From an uncultured Methylococcaceae bacterium (GTDB lineage: Bacteria; Pseudomonadota; Gammaproteobacteria; Methylococcales; Methylomonadaceae): 64,000 bases of DNA. This document shows positions 20,302 through 27,665 of the stretch, piece by piece (position 1 is the stretch's first letter; the number at the start of each line of letters is the position of its first letter). Location of the stretch: positions 1 to 64,000 of the forward strand of contig CAIXAE010000012.1 in NCBI GenBank assembly GCA_903917345.1, given 5' to 3'. The position numbers were made by a program, and so were the translations under genes. The notes beneath the pieces are model-generated. The model saw only the letters and a list, made by a program, of their open reading frames with translations, did no database searches and had not been told where the DNA came from.

Positions 20302-20739
20302 CTAGCTGATTAAATCGGCTTTTTTAAGTGTTGCACGTAACGCTTCTATACGTTTATGGTTAATACCAAAATCAAAATGTCCAGTTCGTGAAGCTGAGCG
20401 AATATGAATGGCATTGTTTTCTTTATCTAGGCAAAAGTCAACGTCATCCACAAATTTGAATATTAGGCTGGTGACTTCCGCATGAATATTATCAGGACTC
20501 TCATGCGTAACTATAAGTCGGCTTTGATGATTTAACTCATCTTTTAAACTAGACCAAGCTTTATCAGACTCGCCTTTAATCTTAAAAGGCTGTATGAAAT
20601 GTTTACTTTCAGGGGTCTCGCTGCTCAAACAGTTAGGTATTTCTTGGCAAGGAGGTAATAACTTTTTAGGTAAGGTATCTGCCTGACTGGCGCCACTGAG
20701 CGTCATAAAAAGCATATAAAAAAATATTTTAAAAGTCAT
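20302..20739 (-). CDS. DUF1499 family exported protein
   Basis: The 145-residue protein begins with a signal peptide (hydrophobic residues 4-18, cleavage probably after SQA). The DUF1499 pattern follows: CQEIPNCLSSETP near the mature N-terminus and CLDKENNAIHIRSASRTGHFDFGINHKRIEAL near the C-terminus. The biochemical function is unknown. It is 36 bases upstream of phrB on the same strand, so the two are probably co-transcribed from the divergent promoter region. Confidence 0.8.
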   Translation of the reverse strand: MTFKIFFYMLFMTLSGASQADTLPKKLLPPCQEIPNCLSSETPESKHFIQPFKIKGESDKAWSSLKDELNHQSRLIVTHESPDNIHAEVTSLIFKFVDDVDFCLDKENNAIHIRSASRTGHFDFGINHKRIEALRATLKKADLIS

Positions 20740-21042
20740 AATAAAATACCGCTGATCAAAATTTAAAATAAAACCAGCTTTTAATTTTCCATAAATTTTA
20801 AAAGTGTCAAATGCAAATTGACTTAATAAGTGCTTGAGAATAATACATTAATATTTATGTGGTTTAAGTGAGGCGCGGTAATTTAAATTTGCCAGTTTTG
20901 AAATTTAAGTTAAAGTGTGACTGAGGTTTAATTTATCTTAGTCTAGATTTCATAATTTTAATCGTCGGAGACATCAACAACGTTGATAGTCTGAACAAGG
21001 CGAATTTAAGTTGAGTTACCCTCAACTGGGAGAGGTATCGTA
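20740..21042. promoter_or_regulatory. Divergent control region between DUF1499-phrB and the LOV operon
   Basis: This 303-base AT-rich gap has no gene. It holds a candidate plus-strand promoter at 20818-20846, an imperfect inverted repeat overlapping its -35 box, and two hairpins (GACATCAAC-AAC-GTTGATAGTC and AGTTGAG-TTACC-CTCAACT). The second hairpin lies just before the ribosome site of the SRPBCC gene. The implied 5' leader is about 190 bases. Confidence 0.5.
20818..20846 (+). promoter_or_regulatory. Candidate promoter of the SRPBCC-LOV operon with overlapping inverted repeat
   Basis: TTGACT at 20818-20823 is followed after 17 bases by TAATAC at 20841-20846. The -35 box forms the right arm of AAGTGTCAA-N7-TTGACTT (20802-20824), a plausible operator for a dimeric regulator. 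This is inferred from pattern only. Confidence 0.35.
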
Positions 21043-21516
21043 GTGCAAATTAAATTTCCTTTTGATTCGTCATCACCCATATCGGGTGAGGCATCCATAA
21101 AAATTAATAAATCCATTGCTGATGTATTTGCATTCATTGGCGATAGGTTCTATGAAAATTATCCTAAATGGGCGCCCGAAGTTGTTGAGTTAGAACCTTT
21201 AGACGGTGAACAGCTTTTTGTGGGCGCCAAAACCAAACAAGTCAGAGCAGATCAAGGTGCATTAGTAGAATCAGTATTTGAAATTACTGATTATCGACCT
21301 GTGGTCAATTTAACATTCAAAGGCATTGATGAGCCTTACAAACATGAATACGTTCTTAAATCCACCGATGAGTCTGATTGTACCGAGTTAACCTTTCGTT
21401 TTGAGTTATCTGAGGTAGAAGTGTTCATGCGGCCTTTTCAGAAGTTGATTCGGGCCTCTATTGAAGAAGGGGCAGAAAATACCGTAGAAAATATTAAAAA
21501 TTTGATGCTCGCTTGA
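21043..21516 (+). CDS. SRPBCC-fold protein
   Basis: This is a START/Bet v1-like (SRPBCC) protein of 157 residues. Members bind hydrophobic ligands in a deep pocket; the ligand here is unknown. The pattern GEASIKINKSIADVFAFIGD, then YPKWAPEVVELEPL and LTFKG...YVLKSTDESDCTELTFRFEL, is typical. The GTG start is preceded by GGGAGAGG at 7 bases. It is the first gene of a seven-gene operon with a LOV sensor. SRPBCC genes are often found in light- or singlet-oxygen-induced clusters. Confidence 0.8.
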   Translation: MQIKFPFDSSSPISGEASIKINKSIADVFAFIGDRFYENYPKWAPEVVELEPLDGEQLFVGAKTKQVRADQGALVESVFEITDYRPVVNLTFKGIDEPYKHEYVLKSTDESDCTELTFRFELSEVEVFMRPFQKLIRASIEEGAENTVENIKNLMLA

Positions 21517-25426: not shown

Positions 25427-26287
25427 ATGGCAAAGCTATTAATTGTGGGCTGTGGCTCTATCGGTTTGCAGTTAGCGGAGGAACTGAGTGCTAAAGGCCA
25501 TCAAGTGACAGGGCTTAAGAGAACGCCGCCGATATTAGCTATAACAGGTATTAACTTTATGGCGGCAGATATTGCGTCATTAGCGCAACTTAATGCCTTA
25601 CCCACTGATTTTGATGCCGTGTATTTTATTGTTTCACCTGATGGTCGTAACCCAGACAGTTATCAAGCAGTGTATGAGCAGGGGCTAAATAATTTACTGA
25701 ACATTTTTAAACAGACAGATGCTAATCCACAGTGGATATTGGTGTCGTCCACCAGTGTGTATGGGCAAACCCAAGGCGAATGGGTGGATGAAGCGAGCAC
25801 GGCAGAACCACAAAATGTTCCCAGCCGATACATCCGACAAGCAGAACTACAATTGACCGCGTTAAATCCGAAAAATATCGTGGTGCGCTTTTCAGGTATT
25901 TACGGCCCCGGTCGAGAATACTTAATAAGAATGGCTCAGCAGGGTGGGGCCGTTCAAAAAGAGCCGGTATATTATACTAATCGAATTCATCAAGCCGATT
26001 GTGTGGGCGTCTTAGTTTATTTGTTAGAGCAAAGTTTAGCCGGAATCGCCTTAGAGCAATACTATGTGGCGAGTGATAATGATCCAGCCCCGCAATGGGA
26101 GGTAATCTCATGGTTAGCAGAGCGATTGGGTGCTGAACAGCCGACTGTTAAAGCGCCAGATAACACGGCTCAATCAAATAAACGTTGTAATAACCAACGT
26201 TTAAAGGCTTTAGGCTATCAATTTAAGTATCCTTCTTATCAAACAGGATATTCTCAGCTTATTAAGGGTGTCAAAGGCGTCAATTAA
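25427..26287 (+). CDS. NAD(P)-dependent epimerase/dehydratase (YeeZ-like)
   Basis: Rossmann-fold SDR protein of 286 residues. It starts with the dinucleotide-binding loop GCGSIGLQLAEEL. The segment SSTSVYGQTQGEWVDE holds the family's SS-x-Y-G motif, and RFSGIYGPGREYL follows. The usual YxxxK pair is not obvious (RYIRQAE instead), as in YeeZ-type members. The substrate is unknown. It is the last gene of the LOV operon; the palindrome-rich gap begins right after its stop. Confidence 0.8.
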   Translation: MAKLLIVGCGSIGLQLAEELSAKGHQVTGLKRTPPILAITGINFMAADIASLAQLNALPTDFDAVYFIVSPDGRNPDSYQAVYEQGLNNLLNIFKQTDANPQWILVSSTSVYGQTQGEWVDEASTAEPQNVPSRYIRQAELQLTALNPKNIVVRFSGIYGPGREYLIRMAQQGGAVQKEPVYYTNRIHQADCVGVLVYLLEQSLAGIALEQYYVASDNDPAPQWEVISWLAERLGAEQPTVKAPDNTAQSNKRCNNQRLKALGYQFKYPSYQTGYSQLIKGVKGVN

Positions 26288-26355
26288 GGTCAATATGTTA
26301 TTGATGCATCAAGCAGCAACGTTGAGAAACCTAGATGAGACGTTCTTCTATAAAC

Positions 26356-26521
26356 ATACGTCAACGAATGGCTTCATACCTTGTTCTTTAATACCTGCTT
26401 AACAACGAGTAATCTATATAAAAGGATCTTGGATAAATATACGTCAACGTATAGCGTGATGAGCCGTTCTTTGATCCCTATTTAATATTGAGTAGGACAT
26501 ACAAGACGTCCTCGGATATAC
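26356..26521 (+). repeat. Two-copy degenerate 83-bp tandem repeat
   Basis: 26356-26438 and 26439-26521 align without gaps at 55 of 83 positions (my hand count). Exact shared blocks are ATACGTCAACG, GTTCTTT and GAGTA. A third start (ATACGACAATG) appears at 26522, exactly 83 bases on, before the pattern gives way to the first long hairpin. Confidence 0.6.
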
Positions 26522-26533
26522 ATACGACAATGT

Positions 26534-26585
26534 TGAACTAACATACGTTGTCTTATAATTTTATAAGACAACGTATGTTAGTTCA
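26534..26585. repeat. Long perfect hairpin 1 (25-bp stem)
   Basis: 26534-26558 is exactly complementary to 26561-26585, with only two bases between. The core TCTTATAATTTTATAAGA is nearly the same as in hairpin 2. The stem includes ACATACGTTG/CAACGTATGT. It has no T-run, so it is not a standard terminator. Confidence 0.9.
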
Positions 26586-26733
26586 TCAACAACTTATAGG
26601 GTACATAAGACCACTTATTTACCACATAAGAGCCTGTTGAATATATATAGGTTAACAAATGTGTATCACTCGACGTCGATCGTGTATCCGAGGACGTCTA
26701 ATGGTTACTAAACGAGCTTTTATAAGGACTCCC

Positions 26734-26761
26734 CGACGTCTTATAATATTATAAGACGTCG
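26734..26761. repeat. Perfect 28-bp palindrome (hairpin 2)
   Basis: The two 14-base halves (CGACGTCTTATAAT and its complement) meet without a loop. The core matches hairpin 1 except for paired changes in the arms (TTG/CAA against ACG/CGT), as expected if the fold rather than the sequence is kept. Confidence 0.9.
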
Positions 26762-26996
26762 AGTAATCTTTAAAGGTTGTCCTATAGCGCTGTTTAACGT
26801 CGGGTAATACCTAAACTTAAACGAGTAATGTATATCGGACGTCCTTGAGTACTTACTCGACGTCATATAGGGTCGATAAGACGCCTTGTTTTTGGGTTTA
26901 ATAAAATAGATACAGTTGATTTAAATACAACTCATAATCAAAATGCCTGTATGCTTAATATACTTTCACACGCTTTATGGCTCTTCAATTCACACT

Positions 26997-27665
26997 ATGA
27001 CAGACATTACTTTTTCAATAGCTGACTACCCCGAGATTCGTAATCGCGGCATTTTTCTGAATACTAAAATATACGAAAAGCTTACTCCAGAAGATATCAA
27101 AACCTGTGCTTGCAATCTTGATGTGTGGGTTGGGAATGCATTAGGAATTGATAGTGACGAAGAAATGAATATATTTGCTGATTATGCCATTTATGGGTAC
27201 CGTCCCAATGGTTTTAATATGGCTGAAAAGTTCTTGCGCTTATTTCATAATGAGGCTGATGACTTTGAACTAGCATTGCTTCGGTATATGCGATCTGCGC
27301 ACTATGTCATTTATCAAGTCGAAGAAACGAATGGCGTGGACACCTTTAATGTCGTGGATATATACAGTAAGGTTCAGTATAAGATTATAGATTTTAAATT
27401 GGCAAAGTCCACTTTTAAAGGCGAAATATTCGCCAGCCATCTGATTGACTTTGAAGGATTCTCTATTCAAACGGGAGGGGCTTTGATAATGGCACCCGAG
27501 ATTTTAGGGTCTGATGTAATGAAGCAATTGATTGAATTTATGAAAGACGCTTATCCGGGTGATTTTTTGAGTTATCCAGAGATTGGTGCATTGCTCGCAA
27601 AAAATATGGCTGCTGCGGGACTAAAACTGGGGGAGCGCGCAAAATTGGGCCGTGTGAAGTTTTAA
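26997..27665 (+). CDS. Hypothetical protein resembling SEC-C-associated domain proteins
   Basis: The stretch from about residue 50 (DYAIYGYRPNGFNMAEKFLRL, then YMRSAHYVIYQVEE, VVDIYSKVQYKI and SIQTGGALIMAP) recalls the domain that accompanies SEC-C zinc motifs in some proteins, but no C-terminal SEC-C cysteines are present. No enzyme motif is visible. The ATG at 26997 gives 222 residues; an ATG at 26943 would add 18 hydrophobic residues, and neither has a ribosome site. It sits alone after the palindromic region. Confidence 0.6.
   Translation: MTDITFSIADYPEIRNRGIFLNTKIYEKLTPEDIKTCACNLDVWVGNALGIDSDEEMNIFADYAIYGYRPNGFNMAEKFLRLFHNEADDFELALLRYMRSAHYVIYQVEETNGVDTFNVVDIYSKVQYKIIDFKLAKSTFKGEIFASHLIDFEGFSIQTGGALIMAPEILGSDVMKQLIEFMKDAYPGDFLSYPEIGALLAKNMAAAGLKLGERAKLGRVKF

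What the first reader, a model, noticed from the sequence alone, without database searches (positions are those of the whole stretch)
26288..26942. Palindrome-packed non-coding region of unknown nature
About 650 bases behind the LOV operon contain many inverted repeats of several sizes built from a few motifs (ACGTC/GACGT, TTATAA, CGRGTAAT). The organisation is unlike a decayed gene, CRISPR, integron attC array or IS end. It may be a structured RNA, a repeat family, or an array for a DNA-binding protein.
Basis: seen in the sequence. Interest (0 to 1): 0.7.

Follow-up and report, generated by a model that had tools for sequence, protein, structure and literature searches.

The report
Dispersed palindrome-mosaic repeat in a methanotroph
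A roughly 630-base non-coding stretch built from about a dozen worn copies of a 41-base near-palindromic unit turns out to be one member of a small repeat family that sits at unrelated intergenic sites in three sister species of lake methane-eating bacteria; it is real and undescribed as far as I could find, but most likely a mobile or neutral DNA repeat rather than a new machine.

Summary
The stretch is the most strongly self-complementary 300 bases of the window (z -15.6) and holds 20 strong inverted repeats against 4.4 in shuffles. Its true limits are about 26262-26894. The left half is a head-to-tail array of a degenerate 41-42 bp unit; the right half holds the same unit in both orientations; the 3' end is a long hairpin followed by TTTTT. 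It is not a lone oddity. Homologues (61-94% identical by segment) lie in two sister Methylococcales MAGs at three other, non-homologous intergenic sites; the readable 3' ends all stop at the same T-run. None was found in other genomes, phages, plasmids or Rfam. The pilT-yggS gap, occupied in a sister species, lacks the element in the window's own genome. Copies are mosaics, lose single 42-bp units, and have different helices perfected in different copies, as expected for quasi-palindrome template switching rather than one conserved fold. I read it as a low-copy, non-autonomous palindromic mosaic repeat. A structured RNA or protein-binding array is not excluded. RAYT transposase and reverse transcriptase were not found in this genome. 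New variant of a known kind (intergenic palindromic repeats); moderate interest.

The parts
26262..26894 (+). whole palindrome-mosaic element (family A), non-coding
   Evidence: limits from alignment with G013:C1, G013:C227+C192 and G010:C33: 81-82% identity to G013a and G010 from about 26262; identity drops from 84-94% to ~40% right after 26894
26262..26333 (+). conserved 5' end (TTAAGGGTGTCAAAGGCGTCAATTAAGG...), includes AAGGCGTC (26274-26281), complementary to GACGCCTT (26880-26887) at the 3' end
   Evidence: the DNA fold closes the element with this pair
26335..26533 (+). left array: five direct, degenerate 41-42 bp units (26335, ~26376, ~26418, 26459, ~26501); a sixth unit present in G013a and G010 is missing after 26347
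   Evidence: profile scan of units; direct repeats D1/D2; 42-bp gap in alignment
26504..26521 (+). left arm of long-range stem, pairs with 26682-26699 (17/18)
26531..26588 (+). central hairpin, arms 28 bp, 27/28 complementary here but only 17-20/28 in the other copies
26682..26699 (+). right arm of long-range stem
26591..26769 (+). right half: units in inverted or mixed orientation, with GACGTC palindrome 26734-26761 (14/14 here, 5-11/14 in other copies)
26770..26893 (+). most conserved 3' domain: long imperfect hairpin followed by TTTTT (26889-26893), terminator-like
   Evidence: 94% identical to G013b and 84% to G013a; fold -34.6 kcal/mol; consensus structure
25427..26287 (+). upstream NAD-dependent epimerase gene; its last codons (roughly GVKGVN and the stop) lie in the element, while orthologues match only to residues 279-282
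26997..27665 (+). downstream gene (ORF listing starts it at 26943), no Pfam family; found in 10 of 35 genomes of the genus

Best explanation
A low-copy, non-autonomous, dispersed intergenic repeat (family A) of about 630-690 bp in a small clade of lake Methylococcales. SHOWN: it is a mosaic of degenerate 41-42 bp quasi-palindromic units, direct on the left and inverted or mixed on the right, with a fixed 3' end (long hairpin + TTTTT) and a less sharp 5' end; copies lie at four non-homologous loci in three species; units are lost singly; identity between copies is patchy along the element; different helices are perfect in different copies. INFERRED: the element is copied at the DNA level to new intergenic sites, sometimes with a bit of the gene upstream of the donor. 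The palindromes are kept and sharpened mainly by replication template switching between inverted arms (quasi-palindrome correction) and by unequal exchange between units, rather than by selection on one RNA fold. When it lands behind a gene, its terminal hairpin and T-run probably serve as a transcription terminator or 3'-UTR structure. No dedicated transposase is identified.
For: Homologues at E 3e-121, 3e-100 and 3e-60 in G013 and G010, next to different genes: pilT/phd-yggS, cydC, an ABC permease. G013b is read across two contigs that share an identical 149-bp overlap. In the window's genome the pilT-yggS interval is 364 bp without the element although the flanking genes are 93-95% identical; G008 keeps the sequence next to the element's 3' end without the element. 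Fixed 3' end and patchy identity, window vs G013b 61% over the first 240 bases and 94% at the 3' end. Single-unit differences. Central hairpin 27/28 here versus 17-20/28 elsewhere, whereas the helix GCYTGTTGAATA.../...TATTCAACARGC is 15-17/19 elsewhere and 10/19 here. G-T versus A-C mismatches in stems 19 versus 32, so no plus-strand RNA bias. G013a carries about 40 bp resembling the 3' coding end of the epimerase ahead of its element. An analogous palindromic array in G029 (same interval as the window element) carries a 55-bp piece of the dtd gene joined at a 9-bp microhomology. Template switching creating and maintaining hairpins is documented (PMC8794818, PMC7202029; abstracts).
Against: Only four copies, one of them cut by a contig end and one joined from two contigs; the relatives are MAGs. 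Single copy in the window's own genome, which is unusual for a successful mobile repeat. No clean target-site duplication, no convincing terminal inverted repeats (8 bp only), no partner transposase found. The epimerase-fragment match is modest when ungapped (24/41, p about 4e-5). The 3' domain is well conserved, which a purely neutral repeat would not need.
Confidence: 0.6

Rival explanations
1. A large structured non-coding RNA gene (about 630 nt) ending in its own intrinsic terminator, comparable in size to OLE/ROOL/GOLLD.
For: Folding far above shuffles in the three copies folded against shuffles (z -10.8, -3.9, -6.0); fixed 3' end at a hairpin + T5; 3' domain 84-94% conserved.
Against: No Rfam match. 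Consensus fold has a positive (unfavourable) covariation term and only 7 of 97 pairs with a both-sides change. The minus strand folds about as well. Helices differ between copies. No promoter above chance. Copies are not syntenic.
Confidence: 0.17
2. An array of binding sites for a DNA-binding or nucleoid protein (one site per 41-42 bp unit, about four helical turns).
For: Unit spacing 41, 41, 42, 41, 42 in G013a, close to 4 x 10.5 bp; recurrent GACGTC/CGAGTA motifs.
Against: Units are degenerate, spacing breaks down in the right half, the array was found in only three of the 35 genus genomes searched, and no partner gene is known.
Confidence: 0.12
3. A retroposed transcript: the gene plus its 3' structured tail was copied through RNA, giving a fixed 3' end at the terminator and variable 5' ends that can run into the upstream gene.
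For: All three readable 3' ends stop at the T-run; G013a seems to carry the epimerase 3' end; the G029 analogue carries a dtd fragment 5' of the array.
Against: No RVT_1 reverse transcriptase found in the window's genome (99.8% complete), G013 or G010; one in G029. The dtd-array junction at a 9-bp microhomology fits DNA-level template switching as well.
Confidence: 0.06
4. A classical MITE of an undetected insertion sequence.
For: Size, non-coding, dispersed, 8-bp complementary ends AAGGCGTC/GACGCCTT.
Against: No other copy or IS with such ends in the own genome even at E <= 10; ends too short and not conserved in G013b; no target-site duplication seen.
Confidence: 0.05

Closest known systems
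REP/BIME and REPIN elements with RAYT transposases (PMC2817692, PMC3116915, abstracts only)
   Same: Intergenic, palindromic units in alternating orientation, mosaic arrays
   Different: Unit 41-42 bp without an evident GTAG head, one or two copies per genome instead of >100, and no Y1 transposase (PF01797) found in the window's genome
MITE-like small mobile sequences (ERIC/RU-1 etc., PMC2229807, abstract only)
   Same: Short, non-coding, dispersed, with strong secondary structure, sometimes fused to gene ends
   Different: Longer, made of internal 41-bp units, without clear terminal inverted repeats or target-site duplication
Neisserial intergenic mosaic elements (from memory; one search located papers that mention them)
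   Same: Intergenic arrays of short repeats with inverted parts
   Different: Different sequence, very low copy number; a defined dRS3-like 20-bp inverted repeat was not tested for
Large ornate RNAs OLE, ROOL, GOLLD (PMC12286853, abstract only)
   Same: Size class and heavy predicted structure with a terminator-like end
   Different: No Rfam match, no covariation support, non-syntenic copies, both strands fold alike

Membership tests
REP/BIME | short palindromic unit in high copy number in the genome | tested here: not met
   the own genome holds only this one copy at significant E
REP/BIME | associated RAYT (Y1, PF01797) transposase in the genome | tested here: not met
   none in G000 or G010; two in G013, not shown to be linked
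REP/BIME | alternating orientation of palindromic units | tested here: met
   direct units left, inverted or mixed units right
MITE | terminal inverted repeats | tested here: inconclusive
   8-bp AAGGCGTC/GACGCCTT only, 7/8 in G013a, lost in G013b
MITE | target-site duplication or precise empty site | tested here: inconclusive
   the pilT-yggS interval lacks the element in relatives but is too diverged to read a duplication
MITE | partner IS with the same ends | tested here: not met
   no partner in own genome at E <= 10
MITE | copies at non-homologous sites | tested here: met
   four loci with different neighbours
known structured RNA (Rfam 15) | match at gathering score | tested here: not met
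   none in the window or the homologous loci searched
known structured RNA (Rfam 15) | covarying helices across homologues | tested here: inconclusive
   7/97 pairs, positive covariation term, only four sequences
CRISPR array | near-identical repeats with unique spacers | tested here: not met
   tandem repeat finder reports nothing here; units are only partly alike and follow each other without spacers
phage or plasmid remnant | similar DNA in phage or plasmid records | tested here: not met
   no match at E <= 0.1; IMG/VR pattern scans gave none or one chance hit

The most novel reading that the evidence does not exclude
Palindrome-mosaic arrays are a recurrent, lineage-specific class of intergenic element in this methanotroph genus (family A here, family B at G000:C10:65380 and C8:181298, a B-like family in G029). 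They would spread without a transposase, by replication template switching that copies the array with a scrap of the upstream gene, so that hairpins make and repair themselves.
Probability: 0.2. Interest if true: 0.7.

Novelty: new variant of a known kind. Interest (0 to 1): 0.42.

Why it matters
It adds a low-copy palindromic mosaic repeat, built from a 41-bp unit, to the known bacterial intergenic repeats. Several families of the same architecture in one genus, with scraps of donor genes attached, would offer a natural record of template-switch copying in bacteria and a warning that strong folding alone does not indicate a functional RNA.

Tried and rejected
Decayed gene: no ORF of 60 aa or more inside and unit length is not a multiple of three throughout. 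CRISPR: no clean tandem repeat. Phage or plasmid origin: no matches. RAYT/REP: no Y1 transposase in the own genome. Retroposition: no reverse transcriptase found in the own genome. Scan of 84,980 species genomes with a conserved 21-base pattern: only the two sister MAGs plus unrelated chance hits. Covariance model of the 3' domain in 201 genomes of the family: only G000 and G013 (G010's contig ends before that domain). Window 20679-21311 scored as high for inverted repeats but is A+T-rich low-complexity DNA. The attC-like hairpins seen elsewhere are not backed by an integron integrase above the curated cut-off. Empty-site reading for a target duplication failed because intergenic DNA is too diverged. 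Literature searches found no description of such repeats in Methylococcales.

Full report
What is there. The stretch behind the epimerase gene is non-coding and full of inverted repeats. It has 20 strong inverted repeats against a mean of 4.4 in shuffles, and 26401-26700 is the most stable 300-nt window of the 64 kb relative to dinucleotide shuffles (z -15.6). The property is similar for both strands and for DNA parameters. In a 400-kb sample of the same genome no 250-nt window reached a comparable deviation (best -31 kcal/mol; -54 for 300 nt here).

Homologues. A DNA search of the own genome found only this copy. Among 60 relatives, G013 and G010 (same genus) hold clear homologues. A pattern scan of 84,980 species genomes recovers the same MAGs, whose records name them Methylococcaceae (CANGLL, CAIXDX); the other pattern hits there are chance. 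Phages, plasmids, IMG/VR and Rfam gave nothing. A covariance model of the 3' domain searched in 201 genomes of the family found only G000 and G013; G010 lacks that part because its contig ends inside the element.

Limits and anatomy. Aligning the copies places the element at about 26262-26894. The 3' limit is sharp: identity falls from 84-94% to about 40% right after TTTTT. The 5' limit lies within the last codons of the epimerase, whose orthologues match only to residues 279-282 while this one ends at 286 with GVKGVN. The left half is a head-to-tail array of 41-42 bp units (spacing 41, 41, 42, 41, 42 in G013a), the right half holds units in both orientations. The window copy lacks one 42-bp unit present in G013a and G010; G013b lacks a different one. 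The last 124 bases form a long hairpin followed by T5.

Dispersal. The four copies have different neighbours: epimerase / unknown gene (window), yggS / phd-pilT (G013a), cydC / unknown gene (G013b, read across two contigs with an identical 149-bp overlap), an ABC permease (G010). Gene names other than the epimerase are read from the translations, not from a family search. The pilT-yggS interval of the window's genome is 364 bp and lacks the element although the genes are 93-95% identical, and G008 keeps the DNA next to the element's 3' end without the element.

How it evolves. Identity between copies is patchy: window versus G013b is 61% over the first 240 bases and 94% over the last 125. Helices are not uniformly kept. 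The central hairpin is 27/28 here and 17-20/28 in the others, the GACGTC palindrome 14/14 here and 5-11/14 elsewhere, while the TTGTTGAATA helix is 15-17/19 elsewhere and 10/19 here. RNAalifold gives an unfavourable covariation term and 7 of 97 pairs with changes on both sides. Non-Watson-Crick opposites in stems are 19 G-T and 32 A-C, so there is no sign of selection on plus-strand RNA pairing. This pattern fits arm homogenisation by template switching, a documented process (PMC7202029, PMC8794818; abstracts), more than conservation of one RNA fold. This step is inference.

A parallel case. The same genome holds another palindrome-packed non-coding array, family B (G000:C10:65380-65830), with a second copy at C8:181298-181673, 73% identical, and none in 60 relatives. 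In G029, the interval between the epimerase (plus one further gene) and the orthologue of the window's downstream gene holds a B-like array that recurs downstream of dtd at C45 (89% identical); the C16 copy carries a 55-bp piece of dtd joined to the array at a 9-bp shared sequence. G013a likewise shows about 40 bp similar to the epimerase 3' end ahead of its family A element (ungapped 24/41, so suggestive only). DNA-level copying with a scrap of donor gene would explain both. Reverse transcription would as well, but no RVT_1 gene was found in G000, G013 or G010.

Filing. It works like a dispersed intergenic palindromic repeat. It is not filed as REP/BIME (copy number and RAYT tests not met), nor as a MITE (no partner, ends inconclusive), nor as a known RNA (Rfam not met). 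Function beyond a probable terminator or 3'-UTR effect is not shown. Limits: four copies, MAG assemblies, contig ends inside two copies, no expression data, no metagenome scan available.

Noticed in passing
L120 5380-5830 (G000:C10:65380-65830) and L126 (G000:C8:181298-181673): A second family (B) of palindrome-packed non-coding arrays with a ~20-bp unit around GACACTGTnAGCGCTAGCGCT; two copies in the window's genome, none in 60 relatives.
   Followed up: partly
L131/L069 (G029:C16:73689-74169) and L134/L135 (G029:C45:66706-67386): B-like palindromic array in the same gene interval as the window element; carries a 55-bp fragment of dtd joined at a 9-bp microhomology, the other copy lies behind full-length dtd.
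   Followed up: partly
L113 16100-16550 (G000:C43): Several attC-like hairpins (GCCTAACAAACCAAGCGG...CCGCATGGCTTGTTATGCC); no integron integrase over the curated cut-off in the genome.
   Followed up: partly
L054 1050-1400 and L055 850-1260 (G028, G022): Long near-perfect hairpins of repeated ACGAAG/CTTCGT (CACGAAGACACGAAG...) just upstream of the epimerase gene.
   Followed up: no
window 26896-26930 and L023 (G007:C28): Short A+T-rich motif TTTAATAAAATAGATAC...GTTGATTTAAATACAAC just after the element, ~86% matched over 35 bp in G007 and weakly in several other genomes of the genus.
   Followed up: no
L050 (G021:C100), 3' of the epimerase gene: Other repeats (CTTAATCGGGCTGATGCA / CTTAATCGTGCCGATGCA) behind the orthologous epimerase; the stretch after this gene differs widely among the relatives examined.
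   Followed up: no
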